A stretch of 64,000 bases of DNA. Source: Niabella soli DSM 19437. Its GTDB lineage: Bacteria; Bacteroidota; Bacteroidia; Chitinophagales; Chitinophagaceae. The translations under genes were made by a program, and so were the position numbers. Shown in pieces: positions 9,781 through 55,754 of the stretch. The notes below the pieces were generated by a model that saw only the letters and a program-made list of their open reading frames with translations, had not been told where the DNA came from and did not search any database. Within the stretch, counting starts at the first letter, position 1; each line of letters opens with the position of its first letter. The stretch covers positions 1,302,001 to 1,366,000 of the forward strand of contig NZ_CP007035.1 in the NCBI RefSeq assembly GCF_000243115.2. The letters are read 5' to 3'.

Positions 9781-10608
9781 ATGAATTTTGTAACACTAAC
9801 ATCAGATATCGGTTATCAGGATTACCTGGTGGGAGCTATTAAAGCACAGTTGTTACAGATCGGTGCCGATATCAGTCTGGTCGATATCTCCCACAATATC
9901 ACGCCCTTCAATTTTCCGCAAGCATCCTACGTGTGCCGCGGCGCTTTCAAAAATTTCCCGGAATTTACCTTTCACCTGATCCTGGTAAACCTTTTTGGAT
10001 CCAAACCCGAAAACCTGCTGGTCGCCTTTCATAAGAACCAATACATTATTTGTGCTGATAACGGATTATTGAATATGATCCTTGAAGAGCGGCCGGATAT
10101 TATTATCGGCATCCCGCTAAATAAAAAAGCTGTTAAGAATACGTTGTATATTACCGGGATCATCGCCCAAACCGTTGAACGACTAATGAACGGGGAATCC
10201 ATCCAGAAAATCGGGGTTCCGGATTTTAATTTCCGGGAAAAAAATCCGCTGCAGCCGGTGGTGGACGCGGGTTATATGGAGGGGCAAATCATCTTTATTG
10301 ATAATTTTGAAAATGTCATTGTAAATATCACACGCAAACAATTTGAAGAACATCGTAACGGGCGTAATTTTCGTATCGTATTTAAACGCGATGAAGTAAT
10401 TGATAAGATCAGCGAATCGTATGCAGATGTGCGCGAGGGCGATAAACTGGCCCTTTTTAACAGCGCCGATTACCTGGAGATCGCCATCAATAAAGGCAAT
10501 GCCGCCGGTCTTTTCGGACTGAAAGGTTTTTCAGACAAGGCCAGCCAGTCTTCCAATATTATGCAAAACCAGTTGCTTTACCAGACAGTGCGGATTTATT
10601 TTGAATAG
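9781..10608 (+). CDS. SAM hydroxide adenosyltransferase (DUF62 family)
   Basis: A 275-residue protein beginning FVTLTSDIGYQDYLVGAIK, the hallmark of the DUF62/fluorinase-chlorinase fold. The N-terminal domain contains ADNGLL and the linker leads to a C-terminal barrel (IIFIDNFENVIVNI). Family members that lack the halogenase-specific loop hydrolyse S-adenosylmethionine to adenosine and methionine using a conserved Asp/Arg/His set. I therefore call it a SAM hydrolase and not a halogenase. It stands alone, 60 bp after the SDR, and is convergent with the SET gene. Confidence 0.88.
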   Translation: MNFVTLTSDIGYQDYLVGAIKAQLLQIGADISLVDISHNITPFNFPQASYVCRGAFKNFPEFTFHLILVNLFGSKPENLLVAFHKNQYIICADNGLLNMILEERPDIIIGIPLNKKAVKNTLYITGIIAQTVERLMNGESIQKIGVPDFNFREKNPLQPVVDAGYMEGQIIFIDNFENVIVNITRKQFEEHRNGRNFRIVFKRDEVIDKISESYADVREGDKLALFNSADYLEIAINKGNAAGLFGLKGFSDKASQSSNIMQNQLLYQTVRIYFE

Positions 10609-10615
10609 GAACGAA

Positions 10616-10692
10616 TCATAGTACATAGCTCATGGTTAATAGTGCCGACTATAAACTATGATCCATCAACTATTGACTATTCACTATTCACT
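10616..10692. repeat. Degenerate TATGA/GACTATT intergenic repeat
   Basis: Between two convergent genes lies a run built from short variants of CATAGCTCATGG, GACTATAAACTATG and ATTGACTATTCACTATTCAC. CATAG and CTATG arms can pair. The same vocabulary recurs in the long hairpin at 61266-61339. Confidence 0.5.
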
Positions 10693-11076
10693 TCACTTCG
10701 TTTCAAACCACACCTGCTTATCCGAATCCCAGCTACCGCCATAATTGATAAAAAGCTCCTCTCCTGCGGCAATATCCCTTACCGTTTTTATTTGTATGGA
10801 GTTGGTTTCATAGTCCATTTCATATTCGCAGTTACTAAGGAAAGAATGATTATAAACAGGTACCCAACCAAGGGCCATGGCACATCGGTTGCCATCAAAT
10901 CCCCATTCAAAAATATAATCATGCAACAGTGTTTGGTCCAGGAGTTTGCGTTCCCGGGCCGACATAACAATTGCCGGGGCGATCTCGATGACCGAACCCG
11001 CAGTAATGGGAGCGTTGGTAAAAACCCCCTTCCCCATTTGCGCTGTTGCAGCGATGTATAAACAAGGGGCTATCAT
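10693..11076 (-). CDS. SET-domain protein
   Basis: A 127-residue single-domain protein; I start at the ATG at 11076 because the SET fold begins with the strand LYIAATAQMGKGVFTNAPI. The conserved pseudoknot motifs are present: YNHSFLSNCEY (the NHS/NC SAM-binding motif) and AGEELFINYGG (the catalytic Tyr motif). SET enzymes methylate lysine side chains with SAM; bacterial targets are mostly unknown. In this minimal form no pre-SET or post-SET zinc cluster is present. It is monocistronic and convergent with the SAM hydrolase gene. Confidence 0.85.
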   Translation of the reverse strand: MIAPCLYIAATAQMGKGVFTNAPITAGSVIEIAPAIVMSARERKLLDQTLLHDYIFEWGFDGNRCAMALGWVPVYNHSFLSNCEYEMDYETNSIQIKTVRDIAAGEELFINYGGSWDSDKQVWFETK

Positions 11077-13339: not shown

Positions 13340-15178
13340 ATGTGCGGAATTGTTGGATATACAGGGCAAAAACAAGCTTATCCGATTATTGTAAAAGGAT
13401 TAAAAAGACTGGAATACAGGGGCTACGACAGTGCAGGAGTTGCTATTCTGGACAGCGATCATTTAAAGCTTTACAAAAAGAAAGGAAAGGTTGCCGACCT
13501 GGAAGAGGCCATCGGAACAAAAAATGTACAGGGCACCACCGGCATCGGGCATACCCGCTGGGCTACACATGGAGAACCGAGCGACCGGAATGCGCACCCG
13601 CATATTTCCCGGAGCGGCACGATAGCCATGATCCACAATGGCATCATTGAAAATTATGCGCAGCTTAAAGGAGAATTGCTAAAAAAGGGTTATACTTTTT
13701 CAAGCGATACAGATACCGAAGTGCTTTTAAATTTTATTGATGAAATCAAAACTCAAAACAACTGCACGTTAGAAGAAGCCGTACGCATTGCGTTGAAACG
13801 CGTAACCGGCGCTTATGTTATTTTATTGATCGAAACCGCAAACCCGGATACGATCATTGCGGCCCGTAAAGGTAGCCCCCTGGTGATTGGCGTGGGCAAG
13901 AACGAGCACTTCCTTGGTTCTGACGCCTCCCCCATGCTGGAATACACTAAAGAGGTGGTTTATATCAACGACTATGAACTGGCCATTGTAAAGCCCGATC
14001 AACTGATCCTCAAAAACCTCGGGAATGAAATTATTACACCCTATGTGCAAAAACTGGATATAGAACTTGCGGCTATCGAAAAGGGCGGTTTTGATCATTT
14101 TATGCTAAAGGAAATTTTTGAACAACCCCAAACCATATTTGATTGCATGCGCGGACGCCTCAATTCACAGGCGGGTACTATCACCATGGCAGGCATTCAG
14201 CAACATGCAGACCAGATCATAAACGCCAGCCGCATTGTGATCATCGCCTGCGGCACCAGTTGGCATGCGGGTTTGGTGGCCGAATATATTTTTGAAGAGC
14301 TCTGCCGTATCAATGTTGAAGTGGAATACGCCTCTGAGTTCCGCTACAGGAATCCTGTTATTAACAAAGGGGATGTGATCCTGGCGGTGAGCCAGAGCGG
14401 CGAAACGGCCGACACCCTGGTTGCCATAGAAACAGCAAAAGAAAAAGGCGCCTTGATTTTAGGAGTAGTTAATGTAGTAGGCTCCTCCATCTCCCGGACC
14501 AGTCATGGCGGCGCCTACACCCACGCCGGTCCGGAGATCGGTGTTGCCTCCACCAAAGCATTTACCGCACAACTAGTAGTGCTTACCCTTATTGCACTAA
14601 AAGTGGCCTATATGAAAGGGGCCATCAACGACAGCCGGTATAAAGGCCTGCTGGCCGAATTAGACCTTATCCCTGAAAAAGTAGCGTGGGTATTGAACCA
14701 CCATGAGCAGATAAAATCAATCGCAGAAAAATATAAAGACGCCCGCGACTTCCTGTATCTGGGCCGCGGCTATAATTTTCCCGTTGCCCTGGAAGGCGCA
14801 TTAAAGTTGAAAGAAATTTCTTATATCCACGCAGAAGGTTACCCCGCAGCGGAAATGAAACACGGCCCCATCGCCCTGGTAGACGAGCAACTTCCTGTAG
14901 TAGTGGTGGCTACCAAAGATCAGTATCACGAAAAAGTGGTGAGCAATATCCAGGAAATTAAAGCCCGAAAAGGAAAAGTGATCGGTATTATTACCGAAGG
15001 GGATGAAACCAGTGCGGCACTCTGTGATGATGTGATCAGCGTTCCGGAAGCCGACGAAATTGTGGCGCCGATGTTATCCGTTGTCCCCCTGCAATTGCTC
15101 TCTTATTTCATAGGGGTGGCAAAAGGATGCAATGTGGATCAACCAAGAAATCTTGCAAAAAGCGTAACAGTTGAGTAA
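13340..15178 (+). CDS. glmS: Glutamine-fructose-6-phosphate aminotransferase
   Basis: I start at 13340 because the protein must begin MCGIVGYTG, with Cys as the N-terminal nucleophile after Met removal; the open frame upstream to 13295 is not used. The 612-residue protein has the Ntn glutaminase domain (1-240; HTRWATHGEPSDRNAHPH) and two SIS isomerase domains (CGTSWHAG; SQSGETADT; GRGYNFPVALEGALKLKEIS). It ends in the typical AKSVTVE. It makes glucosamine-6-phosphate, the first step to UDP-GlcNAc for peptidoglycan and LPS. A 255-bp leader separates it from the divergent DeoR fragment; a glmS ribozyme is not evident. Confidence 0.97.
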   Translation: MCGIVGYTGQKQAYPIIVKGLKRLEYRGYDSAGVAILDSDHLKLYKKKGKVADLEEAIGTKNVQGTTGIGHTRWATHGEPSDRNAHPHISRSGTIAMIHNGIIENYAQLKGELLKKGYTFSSDTDTEVLLNFIDEIKTQNNCTLEEAVRIALKRVTGAYVILLIETANPDTIIAARKGSPLVIGVGKNEHFLGSDASPMLEYTKEVVYINDYELAIVKPDQLILKNLGNEIITPYVQKLDIELAAIEKGGFDHFMLKEIFEQPQTIFDCMRGRLNSQAGTITMAGIQQHADQIINASRIVIIACGTSWHAGLVAEYIFEELCRINVEVEYASEFRYRNPVINKGDVILAVSQSGETADTLVAIETAKEKGALILGVVNVVGSSISRTSHGGAYTHAGPEIGVASTKAFTAQLVVLTLIALKVAYMKGAINDSRYKGLLAELDLIPEKVAWVLNHHEQIKSIAEKYKDARDFLYLGRGYNFPVALEGALKLKEISYIHAEGYPAAEMKHGPIALVDEQLPVVVVATKDQYHEKVVSNIQEIKARKGKVIGIITEGDETSAALCDDVISVPEADEIVAPMLSVVPLQLLSYFIGVAKGCNVDQPRNLAKSVTVE

Positions 15179-33415: not shown

Positions 33416-33724
33416 ATGAACCCTGTAATAAAAATCTTACTATTCGTAACGGGCATCCCAGGTCTTTATTTTTCCCTATTTGTTTTGTACATTCTGAAGG
33501 AAACGCTTTCAACAGATGGAAAGTTGCCGGAAAATGAATTTCTCAGTGAATTATATAGGCTATCTATAATAAATGTATTATGGGCGCTGCCCTTAATTTG
33601 CCTGGTCTCTTTTTTCTTAAGAAAGTATCCTTATGGGCGCCTGATTTTCATTGGCTCAACGGCGGCCTTTGCCCTTTTGGTAATGGTTTTCTTTATATTG
33701 CTCCACAAAGGGGAACTGGAATAA
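33416..33724 (+). CDS. Small membrane protein, three predicted helices
   Basis: 102 residues with three hydrophobic segments (ILLFVTGIPGLYFSLFVLYI; IINVLWALPLICLVSFFL; LIFIGSTAAFALLVMVFFIL) separated by an acidic loop (TDGKLPENEF) and a basic turn (RKYPYGR). The pattern fits a real inner-membrane protein. I do not recognise a family. It stands alone just upstream of the first copy of the large dispersed repeat. Confidence 0.55.
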   Translation: MNPVIKILLFVTGIPGLYFSLFVLYILKETLSTDGKLPENEFLSELYRLSIINVLWALPLICLVSFFLRKYPYGRLIFIGSTAAFALLVMVFFILLHKGELE

Positions 33725-33886
33725 CATTGAGAAAATATTCAATAATGAACGAAAAATTTTAAATTCTACATTCAATGTTGTTTCCTTAAGCATTGAGACA
33801 CGCTAAAAGGGTGTAATTCCAGGACGATACATTAAACTGCTAAAAGCTTGCATCGTTCCTGCAACAATCGACCGTTTAATTTTTTC

Positions 33887-34461
33887 CTACTTTTTGCTCG
33901 CCCAAAAAGTAGAGCAAAAAGGGCAGGGTCAAACGAACGCCTCCGGCCGTTCGACCGCCCACGCACACGAAAACCCAAATCGAAAAGGGACTTTAAGGCC
34001 TTATTGAAAGGGAAGGTTGAAGCTGCGGTCTCCTCCAAACCATGGATTCTTTACCGCGCTGATTTTTTCCGGGAGTGATTCTGCTAAAAAGAAGTTGTCA
34101 TTATGTAAAAAATAGGCGCTCCCGAACCGTCTGGCCAGGGTGGTTTCTATTGCATTCAGGAATGGTCGGCATAAAGAGCTGTCCAATGAAAATGAAAAAA
34201 TTAAACTACAAGAACTCTTTCATAGAAGGTCGTTCGCGAAACAGCAAAAGAAAAATCAAGCAGAATGGCGATTTTGACGCCGAAAAGCGATTCCCGAAGC
34301 ATAAGAACTGTAGGAAGACGGCATAATCAGGCCTATAGCGCAGATTTTTTCGCTCTTGCCGGATTGACCAAGCCTTGGTTCGATTAGCAGTAATCAGGCA
34401 GGATTTGCCTTTTTGCGAACAAGATTTTTTGCTTACCTTTTTATCGACTGAAAAAAGTGAG
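33887..34461 (+). repeat. Large dispersed element, copy 1 (~575 bp)
   Basis: It opens with the hairpin CTACTTTTT-gctcgccc-AAAAAGTAG (33887-33912) and closes with a T/A-rich hairpin around TTTTTATCGACTGAAAAAA (34432-34461). In between, blocks such as GGGCAGGGTCAAACGAACGC, CGCTGATTTTTTCC, AAAAAATAGGCGC, TTTTGACGCCG and TAGCGCAGATT recur in the same order in copy 2 at 55081-55626. Short open frames inside are not convincing genes. Confidence 0.85.
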
Positions 34462-34616
34462 AGAAGAAATAAAGCTGAGTGAGTTTATCAATAGAACGGA
34501 AAAGACTGTATGAACAATCAAATCTTTGCAAGGCCTTATTGACAATGAACGCTATATTATGGGCTATAAACGGAACTATCCTGAAAACTTAAGAAACGAC
34601 ATTGATTCAACATCCA

Positions 34617-35927
34617 TCATTCCATTACCACCCCTTCCAGGTCGTAATCATAAGCTTTTTCGATCTTCACATTATAGAACTCCCCAATCTTTAGTTTTTC
34701 GGCGCCGGTAATGATCACTTCATTATCCACTTCTACGCTGTCAAACTCCGTACGGCCAATATAACGACCCGCTTCTTTTTTATCAATAAGCGTTTTAAAG
34801 GTTTTTCCTATTTTTTCCTGATTTAGTTCATAGGAAATCTCCTGCTGAAACTCCATTACCTCCTGAGCTCTTTGCTCCTTTTCTTCCTGGGAGATAGTAT
34901 CCGCCAGTTTATAAGCGCTGGTATCTTCTTCATGAGAATAGGTAAAGATGCCCACCCGGTCGAACCGCTCTTTGGCCAAAAACTGTTTTAGTTCTTCAAT
35001 ATCATCCCGTGTTTCACCGGGGAAGCCGGCAATGAGCGTGGTACGCAAACAAATGCCCGGTACTTTTTCGCGGATCGCGCTTACCAGGTCCTCCATTTCG
35101 GCCCGGGTGATCTGGCGCTTCATCGCATTTAGCATATTATCGGAAGCGTGCTGCAGGGGCATATCCAGGTAATTGCAGATATTATCGCGTTGCCGCATTA
35201 CGTCTAATATCTCCAGCGGAAACTTTGTAGGATAGGCATAATGCAGGCGGATCCACTCCAGCCCCTTTATATCCGCCAGCCGGTTCAGCAGGTCGGGCAG
35301 CATCCGTTTTTTATAAATATCCAGGCCGTAATAGGTTAGCTCCTGGGCGATCAGCATTACCTCTTTCACGCCCTTTTTCACCAGCCCTTCCGCTTCGGCC
35401 ACCAACTCTTCCATGATTTTGCTGACGTGTTTACCCCGCATCAGTGGGATGGCACAAAAAGAACAGGTGCGGTTACAGCCTTCGGATATTTTCATATACG
35501 CATAATGCCTGGGGGTGGCCAGCAGCCGCTCGCCCAGCAATTCCGTCTTATAATCCGCCTCAAATTGTTTCAGTATCAGGGGAAGCTCCATGGTACCGAA
35601 AAAGGCATCTACTTCCGGTATTTGTTCTTCCAGGTTCAACTTATAGCGCTCGCTCAAACAGCCGGTAACGTAAACCTTGTCCAGCTTGCCGCGCTTTTTA
35701 AATTCTACTTGTTCCAGGATGGTGTTGATACTTTCTTCTTTCGCCTTATCAATAAACCCGCAGGTATTCACCACCACTATATTATGATCCAGTTTTTTAT
35801 TTTCATGCACCACATTGATATCATTGGCTTGTAGCTGTCCGCTCAATACTTCACTATCCACCATGTTCTTGCTGCAGCCCAGCGTAATAATATTTACCTT
35901 ATCTTTCTTTAACGTTTTTGCTTTCAA
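34617..35927 (-). CDS. rimO: Ribosomal protein S12 methylthiotransferase
   Basis: A 436-residue radical-SAM enzyme. The N-terminal MTTase domain has NIITLGCSKNMVDSE and VVNTCGFID with cysteines for the auxiliary cluster. The radical-SAM motif is GCNRTCSFCAIP (CxxxCxxC). The C-terminal TRAM domain includes IDKKEAGRYIGRTEFDSVEV. It adds a methylthio group to the conserved Asp of ribosomal protein S12. RimO is preferred over MiaB because of the LGCSKN N-terminus and the RKxGCxR-type TRAM differences. It is monocistronic. Confidence 0.95.
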   Translation of the reverse strand: MKAKTLKKDKVNIITLGCSKNMVDSEVLSGQLQANDINVVHENKKLDHNIVVVNTCGFIDKAKEESINTILEQVEFKKRGKLDKVYVTGCLSERYKLNLEEQIPEVDAFFGTMELPLILKQFEADYKTELLGERLLATPRHYAYMKISEGCNRTCSFCAIPLMRGKHVSKIMEELVAEAEGLVKKGVKEVMLIAQELTYYGLDIYKKRMLPDLLNRLADIKGLEWIRLHYAYPTKFPLEILDVMRQRDNICNYLDMPLQHASDNMLNAMKRQITRAEMEDLVSAIREKVPGICLRTTLIAGFPGETRDDIEELKQFLAKERFDRVGIFTYSHEEDTSAYKLADTISQEEKEQRAQEVMEFQQEISYELNQEKIGKTFKTLIDKKEAGRYIGRTEFDSVEVDNEVIITGAEKLKIGEFYNVKIEKAYDYDLEGVVME

Positions 35928-55040: not shown

Positions 55041-55754
55041 ATCCTGTCGTGTGGACACAAAATGTTGCTTTTATATTTTTCTACTTTTTGCTCGCCCAAA
55101 AAGTAGCGCAAAAAGGGCAGGGTCAAACGAACGCCTCCGGCCGTTTGACCGGCCACGCACGCGAACCTACATTACGAAAAGTAGCAACAAGGCCTTTTTG
55201 AAGGGGTTGGTCGAAGCCCCGCTGTCTGATTGTTGTTCAGTCTTCATTGCGCTGATTTTTTCCCTGCATAATTTGTCTGAATACAAAACATCCGTTGGGC
55301 AAAAAATAGGCGCCCTGGATCCGTTGATTCCCGAAGTTGCAATTACGTAAAAGAAATACCCCCGATGAAAAACAGTTGTTTGTTCCGAACGGATGCGGCT
55401 TAGAAGGGGGTTCCGCCGGACAGTGAAAGGACAAATCAAGCGGAATGGCGGTTTTGACGCCGCAAGCGACTTTTCAAAAATAGAACTGCAGGAAGGTGTC
55501 ATAACCAGGCCTGTAGCGCAGATTGGTTCGGTTCCGCCGCAGCCCGGGCGCGAAACTGGCGGCGGAATTCACCTTTCGGCGGAAAAAGATTTTTTGCTCC
55601 ACTTTTTTATCGATTGAAAAAAGTGGAAAATATGCAATTAGACAACACTTTATTCATCTGTTTCGATGATTATTGGAAAGCGTGCACATCTAAATATCTC
55701 ACCAGCGGTCTTGCTCTATTTATAAACTATTAAAATGTGTCCACACGATAGGAT
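55041..55754. repeat. 19-bp inverted repeats flanking element copy 2
   Basis: ATCCTGTCGTGTGGACACA (55041-55059) faces its near-complement at 55736-55754 (18 of 19 pair). They enclose 714 bp that contains the second copy of the large dispersed element. No coding gene is convincing in the 1.1-kb gap 54870-55996. Confidence 0.7.
55081..55626 (+). repeat. Large dispersed element, copy 2 (~546 bp)
   Basis: It opens with the same CTACTTTTT/AAAAAGTAG hairpin (55081-55106) and closes with a perfect CCACTTTTTT/AAAAAAGTGG-type hairpin (55599-55626). Internal blocks shared with copy 1 in order are GGGCAGGGTCAAACGAACGC, CGCTGATTTTTTCC, AAAAAATAGGCGC, CAAATCAAGCGGAATGGCG (AAAATCAAGCAGAATGGCG in copy 1) and GCCTGTAGCGCAGATT. 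Both copies are in the same orientation. Confidence 0.85.

What the first reader, a model, noticed from the sequence alone, without database searches (positions are those of the whole stretch)
33887..34461. Large dispersed hairpin-bounded element, copy 1
About 575 bp, homologous over its length to 55081-55626, with A/T hairpins at both ends and conserved GC-rich blocks (for example a shared AATGGCG-TTTTGACGCCG block). No protein frame is convincingly conserved, although short frames in both copies translate to similar Arg/Pro-rich peptides. It could be a non-coding RNA gene, a non-autonomous mobile element or a decayed gene family.
Basis: seen in the sequence. Interest (0 to 1): 0.75.

Follow-up and report, generated by a model that had tools for sequence, protein, structure and literature searches.

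The report
Mobile structured-RNA repeat of Bacteroidota
The two 575-base blocks belong to a family of protein-less, apparently mobile DNA repeats in Bacteroidota bacteria whose conserved part behaves in evolution like an intricately folded RNA that none of the catalogues searched lists, which makes it a new RNA family to test rather than junk.

Summary
In detail: 33887-34461 and 55081-55626 are homologous, hairpin-bounded and have no conserved frame. They are 2 of about 18 places in this 4.70-Mb Niabella (Chitinophagaceae) genome.

The conserved unit is a ~190-260-nt module (window 34218-34463, + strand): a long closing helix, a multibranched core and a terminal 3' hairpin. Covariation is strong: 137 double-change cells against 41.5 shuffled in 32 Niabella copies, 219 against 68 in 21 copies from other genera (0 of 500 shuffles each). 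Imperfect pairs are G.U more than A.C on the module strand (56 to 15), which favours RNA over ssDNA. Outside Niabella the 3' end is an H-type pseudoknot.

In one relative (G097) two of seven places examined hold two modules head to head, so both outer ends are module 3' ends; weaker signs occur in other genera and, not decisively, at the left end here. The DNA behaves as a non-autonomous mobile element: copy 2 is missing at the same place in all six relatives searched, copy 1 in the two that could be compared, and cores sit in two different inverted-repeat shells. Rfam and six paper searches found nothing.

Not shown: transcription, function, what moves it.

The parts
33770..33791 (+). Shell B, left terminal inverted repeat (ATTCAATGTTGTTTCCTTAAGC)
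34586..34607 (-). Shell B, right terminal inverted repeat
   Evidence: found with up to 6 mismatches allowed
33883..33970 (-). Left part of copy 1: possible shortened inverted module, read on the minus strand
   Evidence: R2 match, 23.4 bits, E 7.7e-4, filters off; not decisive, since isolated end hairpins reach about 30 bits in the same call
33887..33912 (.). Left terminal hairpin, copy 1
33927..33956 (+). Hairpin GGTCAAACG...CGTTCGACC
   Evidence: position read; consensus pairs
34056..34119 (+). Hairpin GCGCTGATTTTTT...AAAAAATAGGCGC (arms 34056-34068 and 34107-34119)
34218..34463 (+). Structured-RNA module, copy 1 (full-length match to models R1 and R2)
34232..34421 (+). Long-range closing helix of the module (about 34232-34248 with 34404-34421)
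   Evidence: positions read from the alignment
34260..34341 (+). Internal-loop motif, strands GCAGAATGGCG (34260-34270) and GCCTATAGCGC (34331-34341); this copy departs from the consensus at one base on each strand
   Evidence: positions read; conservation
34433..34460 (+). Right terminal hairpin, 3' end of the module, copy 1
55043..55059 (+). Shell A, left terminal inverted repeat (CCTGTCGTGTGGACACA)
55736..55752 (-). Shell A, right terminal inverted repeat
55078..55164 (-). Left part of copy 2: possible shortened inverted module
   Evidence: R2 match on the minus strand, 23.8 bits, E 6.4e-4; not decisive
55081..55106 (.). Left terminal hairpin, copy 2
55396..55630 (+). Structured-RNA module, copy 2
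   Evidence: R2 191.6 bits
55599..55626 (+). Right terminal hairpin, copy 2

Best explanation
It is a non-autonomous mobile element that carries a conserved structured RNA and no protein. Shown: the unit is a module of about 190-260 nt whose base pairs are held by selection across genera; in genome G097 some copies are two modules head to head on opposite strands, so that both outer ends of the DNA are module 3' ends; copies are present or absent at the same place in related genomes and lie in different inverted-repeat shells. Inferred: each module is transcribed outward from the centre; the pseudoknotted 3' hairpin is the stable RNA end and, as a DNA palindrome, also the end of the element; and the element is spread by enzymes supplied in trans, at least partly as a passenger of the shells. 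For shell A the likeliest helper is an IS200-like (Y1) transposase, because ORFs of that family occur behind the same terminal repeat. I expect the RNA to bind a protein through the conserved GGAAUGGC/GCCUGNAGC loop of the Chitinophagaceae copies and to serve the element's own propagation rather than one host pathway.
For: Covariation on three alignments. Niabella only (A2, aligned without a structure): 137 double-change cells against 41.5 +- 7.4 shuffled, 95.9% of cells paired, slid versions 28-53%. 37 copies of 4 genera (A4): 275 against 79.4 +- 9.0, all 10 pairs of helix 1 changed on both sides. 21 copies without Niabella (A5): 219 against 68.4 +- 6.1, 37 of 41 pairs. 0 of 500 shuffles reach the observed value in each. 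Strand: G.U 56, A.C 15, other mismatches 30 (A4); 49 to 12 in A2; 33 to 9 summed over the rows of A5. 3' pseudoknot outside Niabella: 6 of 6 pairs in 27 of 32 parsed ends, against 360 of 876 with swapped loops and 11% with shuffled loops. Second module inverted beside the first: L148 and L157 (E 7.6e-6 and 4.4e-6; 53 bits each with R2). Mobility: both flanks of copy 2 lie 127-433 bases apart in all 6 relatives searched, against 887 or more here, with no match to the element between them; copy 1 absent in G016 and G011; core shared by G005, G010 and G006 but absent in G009 at one place; two shells; direct repeats beside shell A, CCGCAG in L011 and TGAGG in L059. Y1_Tnp ORFs behind the shell A repeat at 2 of the 5 places printed (of 16 repeat matches), tested.
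Against: No transcript was seen and none could be tested. No partner element with both ends intact was found: the Y1_Tnp copy in L056 shows one end only and that in L059 is truncated; inverted repeats and direct repeats are not what IS200-type transposases usually make (recalled). The empty sites are not base-precise, because the flanks diverged. Single-sequence folds are not unusually stable. In A2 the number of further pair types is no higher than in shuffles (156 of 500). A4 and A5 were fitted to the model, and A2's structure came from a program that rewards G.U, so pairing and the G.U count lean towards the reading; cells are not independent events. In Niabella the 3' pseudoknot is reduced to about 3 pairs, and pooled over all 56 ends the loop test barely separates (35 of 56 at 5 or more pairs, swapped 50%). 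One of the 27 pseudoknot matches (L259) pairs at another site. Head-to-head pairs are clear only in G097 (2 of 7 places examined: L142, L153, L258-L262); second matches in G118, G289 and G383 have 34.6, 27.8 and 23.1 bits, and isolated end hairpins reach 33 and 29 bits (L260) and a wrong-strand right end 27 bits (L267) in the same call, so the 23-44 bits of the Niabella left ends are not decisive. Many phylum hits are short and weak and may be terminal hairpins alone.
Confidence: 0.6

Rival explanations
1. A host-serving non-coding RNA family (for example a protein-binding or regulatory RNA) kept for the cell and merely dispersed by being trapped in repeats.
For: Fold conserved across genera; core conserved at the same place in three Niabella genomes; core found in different shells.
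Against: 5 of 17 Niabella genomes have no match while two have 14 and 12 modules; many truncated copies; patchy presence (6 of 147 family genomes), unlike a core cellular RNA.
Confidence: 0.17
2. A DNA-level repeat like a giant BIME: the hairpins are recognised as single-stranded DNA by a Y1 transposase and no RNA is needed.
For: Terminal palindromes; head-to-head pairs in G097; IS200-like Y1_Tnp ORFs behind the shell A repeat.
Against: G.U exceptions outnumber A.C 56 to 15 on the module strand; 9 of the 27 full pseudoknot matches contain G.U pairs, and I see no A.C among the 32 ends (my reading); long-range helices far from the ends should not be needed for end recognition.
Confidence: 0.15
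3. Ordinary MITE debris whose apparent structure comes from nested palindromes only.
For: Nested repeats abound; single-sequence folds are not unusual.
Against: Compensatory changes in helices outside the terminal palindromes, with shuffling and sliding controls.
Confidence: 0.06
4. Decayed protein gene family.
For: Some open frames of 100-148 aa cross copies of the element.
Against: No frame shared by 12 copies; no meaningful Pfam or NCBIfam hit.
Confidence: 0.02

Closest known systems
Bacterial MITEs, e.g. MITECca01 of Cardinium (PMC9769881; passages read)
   Same: Short, protein-less, terminal inverted repeats, many intergenic copies, spread presumably in trans.
   Different: MITECca01 is 240 bp, derived from one IS982-family element and not found in other sequenced Cardinium strains; this core recurs in different shells and across genera and keeps a covarying fold.
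REP palindromes (PMC3733652; start of abstract in search listings) and BIME/RAYT systems (recalled)
   Same: Hairpin repeats in intergenic DNA; IS200-like Y1 transposase behind the shell A repeat.
   Different: REPs are 20-40 bp palindromes (abstract); this module is about 190-260 nt and multibranched.
Large ornate bacterial RNAs OLE, GOLLD, ROOL (PMC12286853; start of abstract in a search listing)
   Same: Long structured bacterial RNAs.
   Different: No Rfam family reaches its threshold here; this one is multicopy and repeat-borne.
IS605-family omega RNA / HEARO (recalled)
   Same: Structured RNA at the end of a transposon.
   Different: No nuclease seen beside the window copies among the 4 neighbouring proteins searched; no Rfam match.

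Membership tests
MITE | Short non-coding element with terminal inverted repeats | tested here: met
   Shell A and shell B repeats around the two window copies
MITE | Target-site duplication | tested here: inconclusive
   Shell A: direct repeats of 5-8 bp, some imperfect (L011 CCGCAG; L059 TGAGG), read by eye. Shell B: not determined
MITE | Parent transposase element with the same ends | tested here: inconclusive
   Y1_Tnp ORFs behind the shell A repeat, one with a single end and one truncated; for shell B none seen by eye among ORFs of 120 aa or more of 16 loci (no family search run on them)
REP/BIME | 20-40 bp palindrome as the unit | tested here: not met
   Module is about 190-260 nt
REP/BIME | GTAG or CGTC tag | not tested
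   Not searched
Known Rfam families | Score above the gathering threshold | tested here: not met
   No match above threshold in 33700-34700 or in 8 loci with other copies
Group II intron | Match to the Rfam intron models | tested here: not met
   Not among matches at permissive E-values
Protein-coding gene or pseudogene | Conserved reading frame | tested here: not met
   families
Structured RNA | Compensatory changes beyond shuffled and slid controls | tested here: met
Structured RNA | G.U in place of A.C on one strand | tested here: met
   56 to 15, 49 to 12, 33 to 9; cells, not independent events
Structured RNA | Transcript with defined ends | not testable with these tools

The most novel reading that the evidence does not exclude
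An RNA-only mobile element: a Bacteroidota-wide family whose functional product is a structured RNA, in its complete form a pair of divergent RNAs, whose 3' pseudoknots double as the DNA ends, and which is copied by a trans-acting enzyme that recognises that RNA or its single-stranded DNA form.
Probability: 0.2. Interest if true: 0.88.

Novelty: new variant of a known kind. Interest (0 to 1): 0.7.

Why it matters
A strongly covarying RNA-like fold that recurs in up to 20 copies per genome and across Bacteroidota, but reaches the threshold of no Rfam family, would be a new class of non-coding RNA. If it is tied to transposition it would add a way for RNA to take part in bacterial mobility. It would also explain intergenic repeats that are otherwise read as nothing or as spurious small proteins (inference).

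Tried and rejected
Rfam at permissive thresholds gave only sub-threshold matches; the nearest was Leu_leader on L149 at 32.1 bits against a cut-off of 50, E 0.0026. Single-sequence folding of the whole element was uninformative. Plasmid and phage records: no blastn match of the 591-base query; one viral contig with the exact 18-base motif had no R2 match. ORFs overlapping modules in G429: no family. Six paper searches for repeats, MITEs or structured RNAs in Bacteroidota and for Niabella repeats listed no paper that describes this; subscription papers and preprints are not held. I first read the left half as an independent 5' RNA domain with its own pseudoknot; the opposite-strand matches led me to the inverted-module reading, which is clear only in G097. 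For shell B I saw no transposase by eye. A pooled pseudoknot test including Niabella barely separated; I then tested the ends outside Niabella alone, a subset chosen. Rows dropped before A2 was aligned: L031, L139 and the partial matches L033, L007, L008, L093, L124, L025 and L050 (from the list). The probability of the novel case was lowered from 0.25 to 0.2 on rechecking, because the pairing of modules is clear in one genome only.

Full report
What was checked. The window lies at 1302001-1366000 of a single-contig genome of 4,697,343 bases. The genus is Niabella: contig lengths of relatives G009, G016 and G005 equal those of N. pedocola JCM 31011 and of the MAGs Niabella sp. BIN26 and BIN29 (lineage).

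Copies. A search of the own genome gave 25 match pieces, which I group into 18 places (list used). Of 39 genomes (own included) 11 had a match: own, 9 of 16 other genus members and 1 weak hit in another family. With a G005 copy as query 12 of 17 genus genomes match, 3 of them (G001, G004, G012) only by short end pieces. Copies are full-length, left-only or right-only, some with internal deletions or nested inserts.

No protein. No frame of 60 aa or more is shared by the 12 full-length copies compared (by eye); frames over the second copy and over copies in G429 hit no family except one Pfam line at E 0.03, below its cut-off.

A conserved fold. On 32 Niabella right modules (A2, aligned without a structure; nine partial or weak matches were left out) RNAalifold proposes 41 pairs, 20 with changes on both sides. 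The 32 of these outside the terminal hairpin form in 95.9% of cells, with 137 double-change cells against 41.5 +- 7.4 shuffled (0 of 500) and 28-53% paired when slid; the number of further pair types, however, is no higher than in shuffles (156 of 500). A covariance model from A2 (R1) found the module in 6 of 147 family genomes, own included, 2 of them weakly. With 37 copies from four genera (A4) 275 double-change cells stand against 79.4 +- 9.0; in 21 copies without Niabella (A5) 219 against 68.4 +- 6.1, with 37 of 41 pairs changed on both sides. A4 and A5 are fitted to a model, so their pairing leans towards it. The internal loop GGAAUGGC/GCCUGNAGC is well kept in the Chitinophagaceae copies but differs in copies from other families, and window copy 1 departs from it at one base on each strand.

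Which strand and which molecule. If the fold acts as RNA of the module strand, imperfect pairs should be G.U; on the other strand the same changes would be A.C. Counts are 56 to 15, with 30 other mismatches, in A4, 49 to 12 in A2, and 33 to 9 summed over the rows of A5. These count cells, not independent events, and the structures came from programs that accept G.U.

The 3' end. Outside Niabella the terminal hairpin loop (ATCAAG, GTCAAG, GCCAAG and others) pairs with CTTGAT, CTTGAC or CTTGGC just upstream, an H-type pseudoknot: 6 of 6 pairs in 27 of 32 parsed ends (3 of 35 not parsed; one of the 27 pairs at another site), against 360 of 876 for swapped and 11% for shuffled loops. In Niabella it is reduced to GAT/ATC, and a test over all 56 ends barely separates.

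Two modules, head to head. In L148 and L157 (both G097) the model also matches the opposite strand immediately beside the first module (E 7.6e-6 and 4.4e-6 with R1; 53 bits each with R2 in L261 and L262, the same places). Of seven G097 places examined (L142, L153, L258-L262) these two hold a full pair. Second matches in G118, G289 and G383 are weaker (34.6, 27.8 and 23.1 bits), and G133 copies appear as single modules. In Niabella the left end matches on the minus strand with 37-44 bits in L028, L046 and L030 and 23-26 bits in L001, L006 and L017. Palindromes of the same Niabella loci in the wrong orientation give 10-17 bits, but in other genomes of the same call isolated ends reach 33 and 29 bits (L260) and a wrong-strand right end 27 bits (L267). 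So for Niabella the inverted-module origin of the left end is a suggestion. Where the pair is complete, the apparent terminal inverted repeats of the core follow from this layout.

Mobility. At copy 2 the two flanks match in all six relatives searched and lie 127 (G016), 186 (G011), 229 (G006), 317 (G004), 370 (G010) and 433 (G014) bases apart there, against 887 to 1283 between the same matches here, with no match to the element between them (the G016 and G011 sequences are printed). At copy 1 both flanks matched in G016 (168 bases against 1353) and G011 (510 against 1410), again with no element match between them. The flanks are too diverged to read exact junctions. In other Niabella the core is shared at one place by G005, G010 and G006 and absent in G009. 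Cores sit in shell A (repeat CCTATCGTGTGGACACA, with direct repeats of 5-8 bp, some imperfect, inside TCCCG...CGGGA palindromes) or shell B (repeat ATTCAATGTCGTTTCCTTAAGC), and elsewhere among other repeats. Behind two shell A repeats lie IS200-like Y1_Tnp ORFs: 160 aa in L056 and 91 aa, truncated, in L059; I printed 5 of the 16 repeat places and tested these two.

Distribution. With model R2, 46 of 395 phylum genomes (own included) match at E <= 1e-3; I count 10 at E <= 1e-6, one of them (G252) over 88 nt only. Many of the weak ones are 60-100 nt and may be terminal hairpins. With more candidates scored, matches at E <= 1e-6 number: own 14, G016 12, G133 20, G097 9 (left-type modules included), G429 4, G383 3, G289 3, G462 3, G395 2, and 1 each in G118, G520 and G544.

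Known things. No Rfam family reaches its threshold; plasmid and phage records show no blastn match. Six paper searches listed no description; I read passages of PMC9769881 and PMC2864571 and saw only listings with the start of the abstract of the rest.

Judgement. The fold and the selection on it are shown; RNA rather than DNA is favoured; non-autonomous mobility is well supported; transcription, function and the moving enzyme are inferred or unknown. I file it as a new variant of non-autonomous mobile repeat that carries a structured RNA, and keep the stronger reading, an RNA-only mobile element, at 20%.

Noticed in passing
L004:1476-1511, L005:1474-1511 and 2317-2354, L010:1476-1511: Extra CCCGANNNNTCGGG palindromes sit inside the loops of the terminal hairpins in several copies and in some also replace the T-run before the right hairpin.
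   Followed up: partly
L011 about 1420 and 2160; L059 about 1497 and 2114: Shell A ends lie inside TCCCG...CGGGA palindromes with direct repeats (CCGCAG; TGAGG), as if this shell targets a short palindromic repeat.
   Followed up: partly
L003:1223-1500: A ~280-bp repeat with ~33-bp inverted ends is inserted in copy c03; a relative of the same repeat hosts copy c10 in L011.
   Followed up: partly
L138:8665-11032 and 14168-14704; L128:15614-16247: Arrays of ~125-180-bp repeats, some with GTCACCCTGAGC motifs, lie beside the element in other Niabella.
   Followed up: no
L210:6399-6749 and 10280-10780: Open frames of 116 and 166 aa overlap module copies in G429; they have no Pfam or NCBIfam family and look like spurious genes.
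   Followed up: partly
L278:542-559: One IMG/VR contig holds the exact AAATCAAGCGGAAYGGCG motif but no module match.
   Followed up: yes
L218:5786-6195: In G462 two matches face each other tail to tail instead of head to head, the second at E 2.3e-4.
   Followed up: no
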